From Prochloron sp. SulCav_FS08_3_32_3330 (lineage in GTDB: Bacteria; Cyanobacteriota; Cyanobacteriia; Cyanobacteriales; DYNF01): a stretch of DNA of 37,039 bases. Shown one piece after another: positions 13,900-34,088 of the stretch. The DNA lies in the NCBI GenBank assembly GCA_020721205.1, contig DYNF01000040.1, forward strand, positions 1 through 37,039, in the 5' to 3' direction. The notes beneath the pieces were generated by a model. That model was not told the DNA's origin, made no database searches, and was given only the letters and a program-made list of their open reading frames with translations. Position numbers and translations under genes: made by a program. The stretch's first letter is position 1, and each line of letters opens with the position of its first letter.

Positions 13900-13932
13900 T
13901 TTGAGAAAATACCTTCTCCAAATACCATTATT

Positions 13933-14119
13933 TAGAATTGTTTGTTGTTGCGCTTTAGCGCTATAAATATAATTTTTAGAATTGTTTGTTGTTGTGCTTT
14001 AGCGCTATAAATATAATTTTTAGAATTGTTTGTTGTTGTGCTTTAGCGCTATAAATATAATTTTGTGGTGCTAAAGCACTATAACTATAATTTTGTGGTG
14101 CTAAAGCACAACAACGAAC
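13933..14119. repeat. Three 44-bp tandem repeats with inverted partners
   Basis: A unit beginning TAGAATTGTTTGTTGTTG and continuing CGCTTTAGCGCTATAAATAT occurs at 13933, 13977 and 14021 with a period of exactly 44 bp. Each unit holds a GCGCTTTAGCGC-like mini palindrome. From 14065 to 14119 the inverted form GGTGCTAAAGCAC occurs twice, 30 bp apart, ending in CAACAACGAACC, the complement of GGTTCGTTGTTG. Thus the cluster as a whole can fold back on itself. It belongs to the same family as 5883-5934, 20622-20677 and 27573-27705. Confidence 0.85.
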
Positions 14120-22769: not shown

Positions 22770-22943
22770 CGTCTTGTCCCCCTATCCAAACAATGAAAAA
22801 TCATGAATTAGTTGACTAAAAATATAAATAAAATTTAAACCCTGATTAAACAACCAATATTTTTGGCTGATCTTAATATCAGATATTATCTTACCTTATT
22901 TATCTCTCACTTTAACAACTTGATTCAGGATTAATTTAAAATT

Positions 22944-23132
22944 GTCATTGGTCATTTGTCATTTGTCATTTGTCACTGGTCATTTGTCATTGGTCATTTG
23001 TCATTTGTCATTTGTCATTTGTCATTTGTCATTGGTCATTTGTCATTGGTCATTTGTCATTGGTCATTTGTCATTGGTCATTGGTCATTTGTCATTTGTC
23101 ATTTGTCATTTGTCATTGGTCACTGGTCACTG
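22944..23132. repeat. Heptamer tandem array, 27 units (GTCATTT / GTCATTG)
   Basis: Twenty-seven uninterrupted 7-bp units run from 22944 to 23132. Each is GTCATTT, GTCATTG or, three times, GTCACTG. The seventh base (T or G) varies along the array without a fixed order; the C variants cluster at the right end. It resembles the short tandem repetitive (STRR) elements described in filamentous cyanobacteria. All three plus-strand frames are open through it only because the unit has no stop codon in any frame. Confidence 0.95.
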
Positions 23133-27572: not shown

Positions 27573-27705
27573 GGTTCGTTGTTGCGCTTTAGCGCTATAA
27601 ATTTATTGTACTTCTTCGGTTCGTTGTTGCACTTCAGCGCGATAAATTTATTGTACTTCTTCGGTTCGTTGTTGCGCTTCAGCGCTATAAATTTATTGTA
27701 CTTCA
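27573..27705. repeat. Three 45-bp tandem repeats (GGTTCGTTGTTGCGC family)
   Basis: Units start at 27573, 27618 and 27663, a period of 45 bp. Each begins GGTTCGTTGTTGC, continues with GCTTTAGCGC or a CTTCAGCGC variant, and ends ATAAATTTATTGTACTTC. An inverted partner, GGTGCTAAATGCACAAACAAACC, follows near 27720. This parallels the three 44-bp units at 13933-14064. It lies between rdgB and the DUF6439-like gene. Confidence 0.85.
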
Positions 27706-28342: not shown

Positions 28343-28377
28343 GTTATTTGTTATTTGTTATTTGTTATTTGTTATTG
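28343..28377. repeat. Heptamer array GTTATTT x5 at the pgm stop
   Basis: Four GTTATTT units and one GTTATTG run from 28343 to 28377. The stop codon of the phosphoglucomutase gene (TAA on the minus strand, 28372-28374) lies inside the last unit. The array fills the space to the rdgB start codon. Confidence 0.9.
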
Positions 28378-29799
28378 ATCCGCCCAATTTTTAGCCCAAT
28401 TAAGAATAGTTTGAACTGTATTAATAGAATTAGCTTCACAATATAATCTTAACACAGGTTCAGTACCACTAAAGCGAATTAATAACCAACTTTCATCCTC
28501 TAATCTGAATTTATAACCGTCTTGTGTGGTACATTTGATCACATTTTGATCAGCTATTTTTGTTAAAGGATTATTTTGTAAAGAATTTTCTAACATCGTG
28601 CGACTTTCCAGATCTTTTAAATGTAAATCAATCCGATCATAGACAGAATTAAAATTAGTTTTTAACTTTAATTCTTCATAAAGTTGACTTAAATCTTTAC
28701 CCGTTTTTACCATTGCTTCTAATACATAAAGAGCGGATAAAAGGGCATCTCTTTCAGGAATATGATGCCCAAAACCGATCCCCCCTGACTCCTCTCCTCC
28801 TAATAAAACAGTATGATCTAACATTCTTTGCGCTATATATTTATAGCCGATCGCTGTTTCAAAAATAGGTAAATTAGATAATTGAGCTACTTTTTCAAAT
28901 AAATCAGAGCCACTTACGGTTTTAATTACTTCTCCTGTTAATTTTTTTCTTTCTGCTAAATGGTCAATTAAGATCGGGATTAATATTTGTGAACTCAAAA
29001 AATTACCCTGACTATCTACCGCCGCAATCCGATCACTATCACCATCAAAGATAAATCCTACTTTTAAATTATCATTATTTTTTCTATTTTCAGTGCGTAT
29101 TAATCGGAAAAATTTAGATAAATATTTCGGTAAAGGCTCAGGCGCTCCCCCATCAAATAAAGGATTGCGATCGCTATTAATTTCCGTAATAGATACCCCT
29201 AAAAGACGCTCTAAACCACCACTAGCCGCCCCGTGCATCACATCAGCATAAATAGAGATTTTTCCTGCTTTGATATAAGCCAAAATCTCATCTAAATCCA
29301 CCTGTTTCTTTAATTGACTACAATAACTTTCCCAAGGATCAAATGTATCAATCAAACCACAAGGACGGGAAAAAGTTAGATTTTTAGCTAATAAATCCTC
29401 TATTTTTGCCGTCACATCCGTATCTACAGAGCCTCCAAAAGCTCCTTTTACTTTTAAGCCTAAATAATTAGCCGGATTATGACTAGCTGTCAAAACTAAA
29501 GCTCCCAAATAATTATGAGCTTTTACTCCCCAACTTAAAGCAGGAGTAGGGGCATAAGTTTGTGCTAAAGACACATCAAAACCCATTTCTTGCACCGCCA
29601 CAGCCGTAATTTGAGCGAATTTTTCCGCTAAAAAACGGCGATCGTAACCAATTAAAATACGACGAGAAACTGTTAGATTGCTATAAGTTTCTGCTAATAT
29701 TTCAGCAGAAGCTTGAGCAACTTTAAACACATTTTCAAAGGTAAAATCTTTAGCAATAATACCTCGCCAACCATCCGTACCAAATTTAATTTTATTCAT
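28372..29799 (-). CDS. Phosphoglucomutase/phosphomannomutase family protein
   Basis: The 475-residue enzyme is in the alpha-D-phosphohexomutase family. The phosphoserine loop is TASHNP with Ser106; the Mg site is DGDSDR (252-257); the sugar-binding loop is GGEESGG (334-340); the phosphate-binding loop RFSGTEP is near 446-452. It should interconvert glucose-1-P and glucose-6-P, or mannose equivalents; the choice cannot be made from sequence. It resembles the shorter cyanobacterial type (Slr1334-like), not the long Pgm. Both its stop codon and its start codon touch heptamer arrays. Confidence 0.9.
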   Translation of the reverse strand: MNKIKFGTDGWRGIIAKDFTFENVFKVAQASAEILAETYSNLTVSRRILIGYDRRFLAEKFAQITAVAVQEMGFDVSLAQTYAPTPALSWGVKAHNYLGALVLTASHNPANYLGLKVKGAFGGSVDTDVTAKIEDLLAKNLTFSRPCGLIDTFDPWESYCSQLKKQVDLDEILAYIKAGKISIYADVMHGAASGGLERLLGVSITEINSDRNPLFDGGAPEPLPKYLSKFFRLIRTENRKNNDNLKVGFIFDGDSDRIAAVDSQGNFLSSQILIPILIDHLAERKKLTGEVIKTVSGSDLFEKVAQLSNLPIFETAIGYKYIAQRMLDHTVLLGGEESGGIGFGHHIPERDALLSALYVLEAMVKTGKDLSQLYEELKLKTNFNSVYDRIDLHLKDLESRTMLENSLQNNPLTKIADQNVIKCTTQDGYKFRLEDESWLLIRFSGTEPVLRLYCEANSINTVQTILNWAKNWADQ

Positions 29800-29804
29800 T
29801 ATTT

Positions 29805-29902
29805 GTTATTGGTTATTTGTTATTTGTTATTTGTTATTTGTTATTTGTCATTTGTCATTTGTCATTGGTCATTGGTCATTGGTCATTGGTCATTGGTCAT
29901 TT
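29805..29902. repeat. Heptamer array, 14 units in two blocks, at the pgm start
   Basis: From left to right there is one GTTATTG, then five GTTATTT, two GTCATTT, five GTCATTG and a final GTCATTT. The change from GTT to GTC is sharp at 29847. It begins 6 bp outside the pgm start codon (29797-29799 read as CAT), so it forms the whole near 5' leader of pgm. It is followed by CACTATCAACTAT direct repeats up to the grx stop. Confidence 0.92.
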
Positions 29903-29919
29903 GTATTAACTGTCCACTA

Positions 29920-30186
29920 TCAACTATCCACTATCAACTGATCTAATTTACCTTGGGATTCTAAAGCATAAATATCATCACAGCCCCCAATATGCTCATC
30001 ATTAATAAAAATTTGCGGTAGGCTAGTGCGTCCACTGGCACGTTGAGCCATTTTTGTCCTAGCTTTATTATCTCCATCAATACAATATTCCGCAAATTTT
30101 ACCCCTTTTTTCTTTAAAAGAGCTTTAGCACGGATACAAAAAGGACAATAAGTCCATGTATAAATCTCAACTTTTGTGGATTTCAT
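29920..30186 (-). CDS. grxC: Glutaredoxin (GrxC type)
   Basis: The 88-residue dithiol glutaredoxin has the active site CPFC (Cys14, Cys17), then RTSLPQIFINDEHIGGCDD with the cis-Pro and the GG glutathione-binding pair. It reduces protein and small-molecule disulfides with glutathione in the cytoplasm. The CPFC variant is seen in one of the two glutaredoxins of Synechocystis. Length is normal. Confidence 0.93.
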   Translation of the reverse strand: MKSTKVEIYTWTYCPFCIRAKALLKKKGVKFAEYCIDGDNKARTKMAQRASGRTSLPQIFINDEHIGGCDDIYALESQGKLDQLIVDS

Positions 30187-30930: not shown

Positions 30931-31052
30931 GTAATAAGTAATAAGTAATAAGAATAAGAATTGATAATTTCTTTATGAAAATTGATGTTACTTGTTACTT
31001 TTCCAAGAAGTTTCATTATTAGTTTATATAGCAACGGGTTGAAACCCGTTGC
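30931..31052. repeat. GTAATAA heptamers and a GCAACGGGTT palindrome
   Basis: Three GTAATAA units (30931-30951) are followed at 31031-31052 by the GCAACGGGTT/AACCCGTTGC palindrome. The palindrome also forms part of both MITEs and of 25382-25403 and 33441-33462. It is in the leader of the next gene. Confidence 0.8.
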
Positions 31053-31080
31053 CTTCCCTTAATTAATCGAGGTTAAAACA

Positions 31081-32058
31081 ATGGAAATTAAAAAAAAAGA
31101 TTTAGATCAATATAGCAATAAAATTTATGATGCTATTATTATTGGAGGAGGTGCTGGTGGTTTATCGGCGGGTATTTATTTACAAAGATTTTGTCTTTCT
31201 AGTTTAATTATTGATAAGGGTAAAGCTCGGTCTTTTTGGATGCAGGAATTACATAATTATTTAGGGCTTCCTTCTGATACTCCGGGACGAAATTTATTAA
31301 AACAAGGGAAACAACAATATGAGGAAGTAAATGGTCATTTACTTAATGGTTATGTGGAAGAAATTACGGAGGAAGATGAACATTTTTTAGTTAAAGTTAA
31401 AGTAGGTCGTCAAAATACGATTGAGACTACTTTTAAAGCTAAATATATTGTTGCCGCTAGTGGTATTATAGACCATCTTCCCCCTTTAGAAGATATGAAA
31501 AATGTGTTTGATTATGCTGGTTATAATCTTCATGTTTGTATGGTGTGTGATGGTTATGAAATGGTGGGTAAAAAATGCGGTTTTATTGCGGGAAGTGAAG
31601 CTAGTATTCGAGAAATGATTTGGAATTTAAGTTGGTTTACTCCTCATATTACAATCTTTACTCATGGGCTTTTTGAAATGAGTCCAGAGTTAAAAGAAAT
31701 TTTAGCAGAAAATAATTTTTCTGTGGTAGAAACTCCGATTAAACAGTTTTTAGGTCATGATCATCAAATGAGTGGAATTGAGTTGATAGATGGCACTATT
31801 ATTAAAGTAGAAACTGGTTTAATTTCTATGGGATCAAAATATCATAATACTTATCTTGAAAATTTTGATTTGGAAAGAAAAGGTGGTAATTTAATTACTG
31901 ATAAAATGTGTCGCACTTCTCATCCCCGAATTTTTGCGATCGGGGATTTAAAAGTCGGTTTAAATCAAGTAGTTATTGCCGCCGGAGATGGGGCTTTATC
32001 CGCTACTCAAATCTGGCGGGATCTCTGTCGTAAATCTCATCATAAACAACCACTTTAA
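31081..32058 (+). CDS. Thioredoxin-reductase-like flavoprotein (DDOR candidate)
   Basis: The 325-residue protein has the fold of low-molecular-weight thioredoxin reductase. IIIGGGAGGLSAG (19-31) binds FAD, CMVCDGYE carries the redox pair Cys153/Cys156, and IFAIGDLKVG is the second FAD motif. The middle domain normally has GGGDSA and HRRxxxR for NADPH; here it reads IAGSEAS and no Arg cluster is seen, so NADPH use is doubtful. This fits the cyanobacterial diflavin-linked disulfide oxidoreductases (DDOR, such as Slr0600) that lack NADPH activity. The electron donor is not known. A GAGGT site precedes the ATG. Its last three codons and stop are repeated downstream. Confidence 0.8.
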   Translation: MEIKKKDLDQYSNKIYDAIIIGGGAGGLSAGIYLQRFCLSSLIIDKGKARSFWMQELHNYLGLPSDTPGRNLLKQGKQQYEEVNGHLLNGYVEEITEEDEHFLVKVKVGRQNTIETTFKAKYIVAASGIIDHLPPLEDMKNVFDYAGYNLHVCMVCDGYEMVGKKCGFIAGSEASIREMIWNLSWFTPHITIFTHGLFEMSPELKEILAENNFSVVETPIKQFLGHDHQMSGIELIDGTIIKVETGLISMGSKYHNTYLENFDLERKGGNLITDKMCRTSHPRIFAIGDLKVGLNQVVIAAGDGALSATQIWRDLCRKSHHKQPL

Positions 32059-32318
32059 AATTCAAAATTCAAAATTCAAAATTCAAAATTCAAAAATAAG
32101 GATCAGCAACCACTTTAAAATTCAAAATTCAAAATTCAAAATTCAAAATTCAAAAATAAGGATCAGCAACCACTTTAAAATTCAAAATTCAAAATTCAAA
32201 ATTCAAAAATAAAGAACAGCAACCACTTTAAAATTCAAAATTCAAAATTCAAAATTCAAAAATAAGGATCAGCAACCACTTTAAAATTCAAAATTCAAAA
32301 TTCAAAAATAAAGAACAG
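32047..32318. repeat. Five-unit ladder repeat containing AAAATTC heptamers
   Basis: Each unit is CAACCACTTT, then AAAATTC repeated, then AAAAATAAGGATCAG or AAAAATAAAGAACAG. Units start at 32047, 32107, 32167, 32220 and 32273, with 5, 5, 4, 4 and 3 heptamers. The first unit begins inside the preceding gene: CAACCACTTTAA encodes its final Gln-Pro-Leu and stop. It ends at CAACAAAATTGTTG (32319-32332), just before the rpmI promoter region. Confidence 0.93.
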
Positions 32319-32326
32319 CAACAAAA

Positions 32327-32356
32327 TTGTTGCATTGACAAAAAATATGATACAAT
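32327..32356 (+). promoter_or_regulatory. Possible rpmI promoter
   Basis: A -35-like TTGTTG (32327-32332) and a -10-like TACAAT (32351-32356) have 18-bp spacing, 30 bp before the rpmI ATG. A TTGACA at 32335-32340 lies between them but has no -10 at the right distance. Confidence 0.4.
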
Positions 32357-32385: not shown

Positions 32386-32589
32386 ATGCCTAAACTAAAA
32401 ACTCGCAAAGCCGCAGCAAAAAGATTTAGAGTGACAGGAAGTGGGAAAAAAATCCTTCGCCGTAAAGCATTCAAAAATCACTTGTTGCAGAAAAAATCAT
32501 CTGAGCGCCTTCGTCGTCGCTTATCTGCTCTTACTTTAGTAGATGAAGCCGATGAGAAAAATGTTCGTAAAATGCTTCCCTATCTTTAA
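32386..32589 (+). CDS. rpmI: 50S ribosomal protein L35
   Basis: The 67-residue basic protein is L35 of the large ribosomal subunit: [20 protein letters not shown] at the N-terminus, [21 protein letters not shown] in the middle and RKMLPYL at the end, all typical. It is the first gene of rpmI-rplT; infC, which often comes before them in bacteria, is absent here. Confidence 0.97.
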
Positions 32590-32730: not shown

Positions 32731-33084
32731 ATGACTAGAGTAAAACGGGGTAATGTTGCCCGAAAACGCCGTAAGAAAATCTTAAAATTAGCGAAAGGCT
32801 TTAGAGGGTCTCATTCTAAGCTTTTCCGCACAGCTAATCAACAAGTGATGAAAGCGTTGCGTAATGCTTATCGTGATCGGAAAAAACGTAAGAGAGATTT
32901 CCGTCGTTTATGGATCACTCGTATTAATGCTGGTGCCAGACTTCACGGCTTAAGTTACAGTAAATTTGCTGGTAATTTAAAAAAAGCTGATATTCAATTA
33001 AATCGTAAAATGTTAGCACAATTAGCAATGATTGATCCTGATGTTTTTACAAAAGTAATTGAAGTTGCTTCTAATGTTAGTTAA
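32731..33084 (+). CDS. rplT: 50S ribosomal protein L20
   Basis: The 117-residue protein is L20: [32 protein letters not shown] at the N-terminal tail in outline, then [31 protein letters not shown] and the C-terminal globular part. L20 binds 23S rRNA early in assembly and in several bacteria represses its own operon. A strong terminator follows. Confidence 0.97.
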
Positions 33085-33121: not shown

Positions 33122-33171
33122 AAAATTATTGCCATCTTCAGTCATACTGGGGGTGGCAATAATTTTTTTTT
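33122..33171 (+). terminator. rplT terminator
   Basis: AAAATTATTGCCA (33122-33134) and TGGCAATAATTTT (33154-33166) form a 13-bp perfect stem with a 19-base loop, followed by T's to 33171. This is a standard intrinsic terminator for rpmI-rplT. Confidence 0.9.
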
Positions 33172-33413
33172 AGTCGCTTTAGCAGACTTTTGCTGTTAGC
33201 AATAAAATTTATTTCATTGCGATATTAAAACTGAAAGCTTTTAACCCGCATCGCAATAAATTTTAGATCAAAATTTTAAAATTTAAGTCGCTTTAGCAGA
33301 CTTTTGCTGTTAGCAATGAAATTTATTTCATTGCGATATTAAAACTGAAAGCTTTTAACCCGCATCGCAATAAATTGACGATGCTAATAGCAAAAATCTG
33401 CTAAAGCGATTAA
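33172..33413. repeat. Duplicated 91-bp fold-back element
   Basis: Two 91-bp direct copies, 33172-33262 and 33286-33376, differ at one base. Each opens with AGTCGCTTTAGCAGAC and contains an inner ATTGCGAT/ATCGCAAT inverted repeat. At 33380-33413 the start of the unit is repeated in inverted form (GCTAATAGCAAAAATCTGCT...), so copy 2 with this tail forms a fold-back of about 130 bp. No coding sequence is seen. Confidence 0.85.
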
Positions 33414-33458
33414 TTCCTGTTAGAAACTCAAGAGTTTTTAGCAACGGGTTGAAACCCG

Positions 33459-34088
33459 TTACCTTTCAATTTTTTCTTTAAATTCTAACACCGCATCAAA
33501 AGGCTCTTCATAACTAATATAATGGGTAAATAAATCTAAATCTAAATCAGGTAATAAAACACTTTGATTAACTTTAATATAGGTATCATTTTCTAATACA
33601 TATAAACTTAATTTTTCCCTTTGCCAAAACCAAACTTCTTTAACACCTAAACCTTGATAAATGTTTAAAGAATCAATACCACCGCTTGTTACAATTACTT
33701 CAATTGCTAAATCAGGAAGATCTTTTTCTGTCTCAAAACAATAACATTCATCAGGCTCGATTCCTCTTTTAAGAATTTTATTTTTAAAAGTAGTTGATCC
33801 TAAAGGATAAAATCTTATTTTCTTAGTAAAAAAATAACTTTCTAAAAGCATTCCAATTATTTTTTTATCAAACTCATGACGGCGACTAGGTGACATAATA
33901 GCTAAATTTTCCTCCCAATATTTAAACTTAATTCCGGCTGAATCTCCCCAAAATTGTAATAAACTTTCATACTGATTCCAGCTAATATTATTAACAAGAA
34001 AAATTTGCTCTGATTCAGCATCTTTAGACTTGGCAAAATTAACCATTGTCTTCAGATTTTCTAATTTATGATCTATTGCTAAAACCAT
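33459..34088 (-). CDS. Uma2 family endonuclease, copy A
   Basis: The 209-residue protein is in the Uma2 (DUF820) family, a PD-(D/E)XK nuclease-like fold much expanded in cyanobacteria and with no settled function. Seen are IMSPSRRHE (64-72), RGIEPDECY (Glu111, Asp113) and LPDLAIEVIVTSGG (Asp126, Glu130), then GVKEVWFW. It is a tandem copy of the next gene (34184-34816): the first 75 residues are identical, the middle differs. Its 3' end has been overwritten by a GCAACGGGTT palindrome (33441-33462), which supplies the last codon and stop (IER instead of IEAV). Confidence 0.85.
   Translation of the reverse strand: MVLAIDHKLENLKTMVNFAKSKDAESEQIFLVNNISWNQYESLLQFWGDSAGIKFKYWEENLAIMSPSRRHEFDKKIIGMLLESYFFTKKIRFYPLGSTTFKNKILKRGIEPDECYCFETEKDLPDLAIEVIVTSGGIDSLNIYQGLGVKEVWFWQREKLSLYVLENDTYIKVNQSVLLPDLDLDLFTHYISYEEPFDAVLEFKEKIER

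What the first reader, a model, noticed from the sequence alone, without database searches (positions are those of the whole stretch)
32047..32318. Ladder repeat that copies the last codons and stop of the upstream gene
Five units begin with the same CAACCACTTTAA that ends the flavoprotein gene and carry 5, 5, 4, 4 and 3 AAAATTC heptamers. The stepwise loss and alternating GGATCAG/AGAACAG linkers show ordered amplification from the gene end outward, a nested repeat (heptamers inside 46-60 bp units) placed between this gene and rpmI.
Basis: seen in the sequence. Interest (0 to 1): 0.58.

Follow-up and report, generated by a model that had tools for sequence, protein, structure and literature searches.

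The report
Nested seven-base repeat copying gene end
Between two genes of a cyanobacterium lies a repeat-within-a-repeat that copied the last codons and stop of the gene before it; it is a striking case of a repeat type common in this genome and most likely grew by copying slips, without a special function.

Summary
In detail: 32047-32318 holds five units (60, 60, 53, 53, 46 bp), each CAACCACTTT + (AAAATTC)n + a 15-base linker, n = 5,5,4,4,3. Unit 1 is the gene's own end (CAA CCA CTT TAA); four copies follow. Linkers run G,G,A,G,A, not strictly alternating. The falling counts are weak evidence of directed amplification: 2 of 30 possible orders are monotone, and the four other nested arrays with four or more blocks are not.

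The genome is a heptamer-rich cyanobacterium: AAAATTCx3 matches 217 times, reversed control 0; in 437 kb there are 38 exact heptamer arrays against 0 simulated. Ten of 73 inspected arrays are nested; in five the repeated unit includes the gene's stop codon. The reason: arrays here start against a coding edge; 48 of 52 intergenic arrays with both neighbours known lie nearer the gene on their 5' side.

Best explanation: a slip between two CAAC words, the right one in a small hairpin, duplicated the heptamer tract with the gene tail; unequal exchange and heptamer slippage made the ladder. No function is indicated. The polarity of the arrays is unexplained.

The parts
31081..32058 (+). Flavoprotein gene (pyridine-nucleotide-disulphide oxidoreductase type, thioredoxin-reductase-like), 325 aa, ending CAA CCA CTT TAA
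   Evidence: ORF and translation; Pfam PF07992 E 9e-20, TIGR01292 109.6 bits against a cutoff of 343
32047..32106 (+). Unit 1: gene end CAACCACTTTAA, 5 heptamers, linker AAAAATAAGGATCAG
32107..32166 (+). Unit 2: identical to unit 1 (5 heptamers, G-type linker)
32167..32219 (+). Unit 3: 4 heptamers, A-type linker (AGAACAG)
32220..32272 (+). Unit 4: 4 heptamers, G-type linker
32273..32318 (+). Unit 5: 3 heptamers, A-type linker, next to the unique right flank
32319..32322 (+). CAAC, the 4-bp word shared with the start of every unit; proposed slip point
   Evidence: junction comparison: right homology 4, left homology 0
32318..32333 (.). Small inverted repeat GCAACA-AAAT-TGTTGC (6-bp stem) holding the right CAAC
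   Evidence: 40 of 200 (+) and 26 of 200 (-) shuffles of a 56-base stretch fold at least as well, so it is weak
32386..32589 (+). rpmI, ribosomal protein L35; start 67 bases after the array
   Evidence: TIGR00001 89.5 bits, cutoff 51.2
32731..33084 (+). rplT, ribosomal protein L20
   Evidence: TIGR01032 161.9 bits, cutoff 65.65

Best explanation
A short AAAATTC heptamer array, of the kind scattered through this cyanobacterial genome, began at the stop codon of the flavoprotein gene. A replication slip or illegitimate exchange between two CAAC words, one nine bases before the stop codon and one in a small hairpin just past the array, duplicated gene tail + heptamers + linker as one block (inferred). 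Later unequal exchange between the copies, at least once as a two-unit block with linker types G,A, raised the number to five, while slippage inside each block changed the heptamer counts (inferred). Every unit starts with the same three codons and stop, so gaining or losing whole units leaves the upstream protein unchanged and shifts only the distance to rpmI (follows from the sequence). That makes the array close to neutral and lets it persist. No regulatory function is indicated.
For: Unit start and unique right flank share CAAC, with no match to the left of the unit; by the usual formula for random junctions at this base composition, 4 or more shared bases has a chance of roughly 3% (my estimate, not a call). 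The right CAAC lies in a small inverted repeat. Long exact matches at 106 and 166 bp (78 bp each) against 49 bp at 53 bp fit copying of a two-unit block. The genome is rich in heptamer arrays and 10 of 73 inspected AAAATTC arrays are nested; in 5 of the 8 nested arrays at an ORF's 3' end the unit includes the stop codon, and L073 shows the same plan with TGA at the unit start and in the right flank. Arrays in this genome start at coding edges, so block duplication is bound to take gene ends along. Array RNA is less structured than shuffled sequence and the + strand has no terminator-like site.
Against: The 4-bp match is short and the hairpin weak. L072 and L087 have no shared extension left of the first heptamer block, so the same route is not shown for all nested arrays. 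The strong polarity of arrays toward coding edges is not explained by plain slippage.
Confidence: 0.72

Rival explanations
1. The array is a selected regulatory or insulating spacer: an unstructured stretch in the 3' UTR or leader between the flavoprotein gene and rpmI-rplT, tuned by unit number.
For: It fills 260 of the 327 bases between the two genes (coordinates); arrays abut coding edges genome-wide; STRR heptamers in the hoxW promoter region of Nostoc have been suggested to affect transcripts (passage of PMC2670836).
Against: RNA folds worse than shuffles (z +1.19, 88 of 100 fold at least as well); no terminator-like site on the + strand and no excess of promoter-like sites; the flavoprotein-rpmI neighbourhood was not found elsewhere (0 of 80 rplT loci, 0 of 14 flavoprotein loci within the flanks held); nine arrays lie inside ORFs.
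Confidence: 0.12
2. Assembly artefact: the number or order of units was made by the assembler from a simpler array.
For: Draft of 209 contigs; two other AAAATTC arrays (C35 and C65) run into contig ends, so such tracts do break this assembly.
Against: Longest exact repeat in the array is 102 bp, shorter than common reads; units differ in heptamer count and linker; nine other nested arrays with other linkers and flanks occur in the genome. The flanks and at least one full unit of each type cannot be assembler inventions.
Confidence: 0.1
3. The heptamer tracts are, or descend from, strand-specific insertions at coding edges (mobile or templated), and the nesting is secondary.
For: 48 of 52 arrays lie nearer the gene on their 5' side, 8 of 8 even between two convergent stops; median distance 3 bp left against 57 bp right. 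In G034 and G043 arrays sit between recurring flanking sequences, as if part of dispersed elements.
Against: No transposase, target duplication or defined end was searched for at this array; the linkers and gene tail were copied too, which plain insertion of heptamers does not explain; G110 shows no polarity (4 of 8).
Confidence: 0.06

Closest known systems
Cyanobacterial short tandemly repeated repetitive (STRR) heptanucleotide sequences (Mazel et al. 1990, seen only as a reference in PMC2670836; passages of PMC2670836 read)
   Same: Seven-base units in tandem, mostly between genes, many places in one cyanobacterial genome, function not known.
   Different: Here the heptamer tract is itself a part of a 46-60 bp unit repeated five times, and the unit includes the end of a gene. 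Whether nested STRRs are in print I could not establish.
TAACTGA direct repeats of Beggiatoaceae, Cyanobacteria and Bacteroidetes (PMC4679880; abstract and passages read)
   Same: A single heptamer in many short arrays, mostly intergenic, with orientation preferences toward gene edges; some overlap a stop codon.
   Different: Different heptamer; no nesting in the passages read; there the bias in one genome is toward start codons.
AATTCAAAATTCAAAATTCAAAATG in a predicted promoter stretch of the jamaicamide cluster of Lyngbya majuscula (PMC2799420; passages read)
   Same: The same heptamer in tandem in an unrelated cyanobacterium.
   Different: Listed only as part of a predicted promoter region; not described as a repeat in the passages shown.
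Minisatellites / VNTR loci with internal short repeats (recalled)
   Same: Tandem 46-60 bp units that vary by internal short-repeat number and linker bases.
   Different: Length variation between strains is not shown here.

Membership tests
Cyanobacterial heptanucleotide STRR | Exact or near-exact 7-bp units in tandem | tested here: met
   AAAATTC in runs of 5,5,4,4,3
Cyanobacterial heptanucleotide STRR | Many dispersed, mainly intergenic copies in a cyanobacterial genome | tested here: met
   217 matches of three copies, control 0; 63 of 72 arrays intergenic; PetC cytochrome b6-f protein in the window
Cyanobacterial heptanucleotide STRR | Simple arrays of one period | tested here: not met
   This array is two-level (7 bp inside 46-60 bp); so are 9 others of 72. 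It is a variant rather than a plain example.
TAACTGA repeat family | The heptamer TAACTGA | tested here: not met
   Unit is AAAATTC
VNTR / minisatellite | Tandem units of about 10-100 bp | tested here: met
   60, 60, 53, 53, 46 bp
VNTR / minisatellite | Unit number varies between strains | not testable with these tools
   No close relative is held
CRISPR-like array | Constant repeats separated by unique spacers | tested here: not met
   All parts of the unit repeat; linkers are two versions of one sequence

The most novel reading that the evidence does not exclude
In this genome AAAATTC arrays are polar: the 5' side of the AAAATTC strand lies against a coding edge, whether that is a stop codon or the start of a gene pointing away, and a like tendency shows in four of the five other cyanobacteria sampled. 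This would mean a directed, strand-specific seeding of heptamer arrays at coding edges, with gene tails then caught up in nested duplications, so that the arrays act as a steady source of duplicated and remodelled gene ends.
Probability: 0.2. Interest if true: 0.55.

Novelty: new variant of a known kind. Interest (0 to 1): 0.33.

Why it matters
It records several steps of repeat growth in one place (heptamer slippage, block duplication, capture of a gene end) and shows why capturing the stop codon makes the growth harmless to the upstream protein. The wider pattern, arrays starting within a few bases of coding edges with fixed polarity, is testable in any cyanobacterial genome and would bear on how heptamer repeats arise, which is not settled. 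As a single locus it is an elegant but probably neutral case.

Tried and rejected
Looked for a close relative carrying the un-amplified form. P0001 in genome contigs found none; the relatives searched are same-order only, with no rpmI in 14 fetched flavoprotein loci; 80 rplT loci had no P0001 homologue within their flanks and no AAAATTC pair in the 400 bp before rpmI. Rfam scan of the window: 0 families. tRNA scan: 0. RNA structure: less than shuffled. Directed ladder: not established. CRISPR-like array: rejected from the sequence.

Paper searches on heptanucleotide and STRR repeats in cyanobacteria, nested repeats and simple repeats in prokaryotes, and the heptamer string itself listed no report that I recognised as nested heptamer arrays copying gene ends; the library holds open-licence papers only, and I judged by listings and passages of three papers, so this is weak evidence of absence.

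Limits of the genome survey: the 72 arrays besides the window are the places listed for three or more copies up to contig C100 (that listing was cut) and the places with four or more copies, except C110:14565, which I did not fetch. ORFs were called mechanically (100 aa or more, ATG/GTG/TTG starts), so some gene starts are placed too far upstream, inside arrays (negative distances). Of 63 intergenic arrays, 4 had no left and 8 no right neighbour in the stretch and are left out of those counts. The G147, G097 and G110 samples are small (14, 6, 8). Results against polarity: G110 shows none (4 of 8) and G043 (14 of 19) is weaker. Other heptamer families in the 437-kb sample do not show a clear common rule (read by eye). 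A first ORF pass with a 70-aa limit was replaced. One search reported the repeat in 88-base register only and added nothing.

Full report
WHAT IS THERE. Five units start at 32047, 32107, 32167, 32220 and 32273; each is CAACCACTTT, then AAAATTC repeated 5, 5, 4, 4 or 3 times, then AAAAATAA plus GGATCAG or AGAACAG. Unit 1 is the true end of the 325-aa ORF 31081-32058 (CAA CCA CTT TAA); the stop codon shares two bases with the first heptamer. The ORF is a pyridine-nucleotide-disulphide oxidoreductase relative (Pfam PF07992) whose best NCBIfam model is thioredoxin reductase, far below that model's cutoff. rpmI (32386-32589) and rplT follow.

IS IT MORE THAN CHANCE. Yes for the repeat, not clearly for the staircase. 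In 437 kb of this genome (the window plus 20 sampled 20-kb pieces) there are 38 exact heptamer arrays of three or more copies, against 0 in eight order-3 Markov simulations, and against 1 to 3 observed for periods 5, 6, 8, 9 and 10. The 12-mer CAACCACTTTAA occurs only in the array. But of the 30 distinct orders of {5,5,4,4,3}, two are monotone, and the four other nested arrays with four or more blocks are not monotone: 4-3-3-7, 3-2-3-3-3-3-2, 4-3-4-4-3, 3-4-5-5-4.

THE GENOME CONTEXT. The host is a cyanobacterium by its PetC gene and by its rplT relatives; its genome is an unnamed draft of 4.73 Mb in 209 contigs. AAAATTCx3 matches 217 times, the reversed pattern 0 times. I examined 72 array places besides the window (selection in Tried and rejected). 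Nine lie inside ORFs, all nine in sense orientation; the sense strand reads as an open KIQNSKF cycle while the other strand carries TGA in every frame, as follows from the sequence. Of the 59 intergenic arrays with a known left neighbour, 49 start within 16 bp of that ORF's edge; of 55 with a known right neighbour, 2 end within 16 bp of it. With both known, 48 of 52 lie nearer the left gene (binomial p about 1e-10). The side preference is seen in each gene arrangement: 24 of 25 with both genes forward, 12 of 14 with both genes reverse, 8 of 8 convergent, 4 of 5 divergent (the last is too few to be significant).

NESTING IS COMMON HERE. Ten of 73 arrays (window included) have two or more heptamer blocks within 260 bp of each other. 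Eight of the ten are at an ORF's 3' end; in five of those the repeated unit includes the stop codon (window, L051, L053, L071, L073), and in three of these also two or more codons (window 3, L051 12, L053 2). In L071 the match reaches the stop by three bases only and may be incidental. So copying a gene's end is what tends to happen when an array that starts at a stop codon is duplicated as a block. It is not a singular event at this locus.

HOW IT PROBABLY AROSE. The unit start and the unique DNA after the last linker share CAAC; left of the unit there is no match. The right CAAC lies in the stem of a small inverted repeat, 32318-32333, weak by comparison with shuffles. A slip from the right CAAC back to the left CAAC would duplicate precisely this unit. 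L073 shows the same plan with TGA at the unit start and in the right flank; L072 and L087 do not show a shared extension on the left. The linker order G,G,A,G,A and the exact matches at 106 and 166 bp (78 bp each, against 49 bp at 53 bp) fit copying of a (G,A) pair followed by one more left copy, with heptamer counts drifting. These historical steps are inferred.

WHAT IT DOES. Probably nothing selected. The array RNA is less structured than shuffled sequence (z +1.19); there is no terminator-like site on the + strand and no excess of promoter-like sites. The flavoprotein-rpmI neighbourhood was not seen elsewhere: 0 of 80 rplT loci and 0 of 14 flavoprotein loci, within the flanks held. Because every unit starts with the same codons and stop, contraction or expansion by whole units leaves the protein unchanged; this follows from the sequence.

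OTHER GENOMES. AAAATTCx3 occurs in 32 of 148 same-order genomes (own genome included) and is abundant in only a few scattered ones. In the samples, arrays are nearer the left gene in G034 (16 of 18), G043 (14 of 19), G147 (6 of 8) and G097 (4 of 5), but not in G110 (4 of 8). In G034 and G043 the arrays are bordered by recurring flanks, suggesting that they ride within dispersed elements there. This polarity is the part I cannot explain, and it is the basis of the most novel reading.

COMPARED WITH WHAT IS KNOWN. It belongs with the cyanobacterial heptanucleotide repeats (STRR; passages of PMC2670836) and resembles the TAACTGA repeats in having orientation preferences at gene edges (abstract and passages of PMC4679880). 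According to the latter paper's introduction, Mrazek and colleagues found heptanucleotides the most abundant class in most repeat-rich genomes and proposed polymerase slippage (passage). The two-level structure that includes a gene end is what differs.

VERDICT. A genuine, attractive nested repeat; a variant of the cyanobacterial heptamer repeats; growth by slippage and unequal exchange is the best explanation. The directional-ladder reading is not established, and the exact unit number awaits long reads.

Noticed in passing
L051-L090 and L191-L222 (own genome), e.g. L064, L069, L075, L056: AAAATTC arrays start within a few bases of a coding edge on their 5' side, at stops and also at starts of genes pointing away; the 3' side is usually 20-150 bp from the next gene. 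Unexplained polarity.
   Followed up: partly
L251-L270 (G043): In another cyanobacterium the AAAATTC array is enclosed by recurring flanks (TATAGCGCTACGCGC before, GGCTATGACTAGGTTTCAGGCTTTATTAATG after; a second flank pair also recurs), like a small dispersed element with a heptamer core.
   Followed up: no
L231-L250 (G034): Arrays often preceded by GGGGACAAATC and followed by AAGAATNCTGGGGAAA-like sequence, another recurring frame around the same heptamer.
   Followed up: no
window 22942-23122 and 29801-29939: Two long arrays of other heptamers (TTGTCAT about 26 copies; ATTTGTC about 15 copies followed by TATCAAC), the second starting 2 bp after the start codon end of the reverse gene 28372-29799.
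   Followed up: no
window 33168-33376: A 114-bp tandem duplication (1.8 copies, 97% match) downstream of rplT, with GCAATAAAATTTATTTCATTGC inverted repeats inside.
   Followed up: no
window 13931-14109 and 27573-27704: Tandem repeats of 44-45 bp at two places, both containing a GCGCTATAAAT block, perhaps related.
   Followed up: no
window 31032-31053 and 33441-33462: AGCAACGGGTTGAAACCCGTT palindromes, also present near heptamer arrays in L052, L074 and L080: a dispersed hairpin element.
   Followed up: no
L054 (G000:C35 end) and L055 (G000:C65 end): Two contigs of the draft end inside AAAATTC arrays, so these tracts break the assembly.
   Followed up: no
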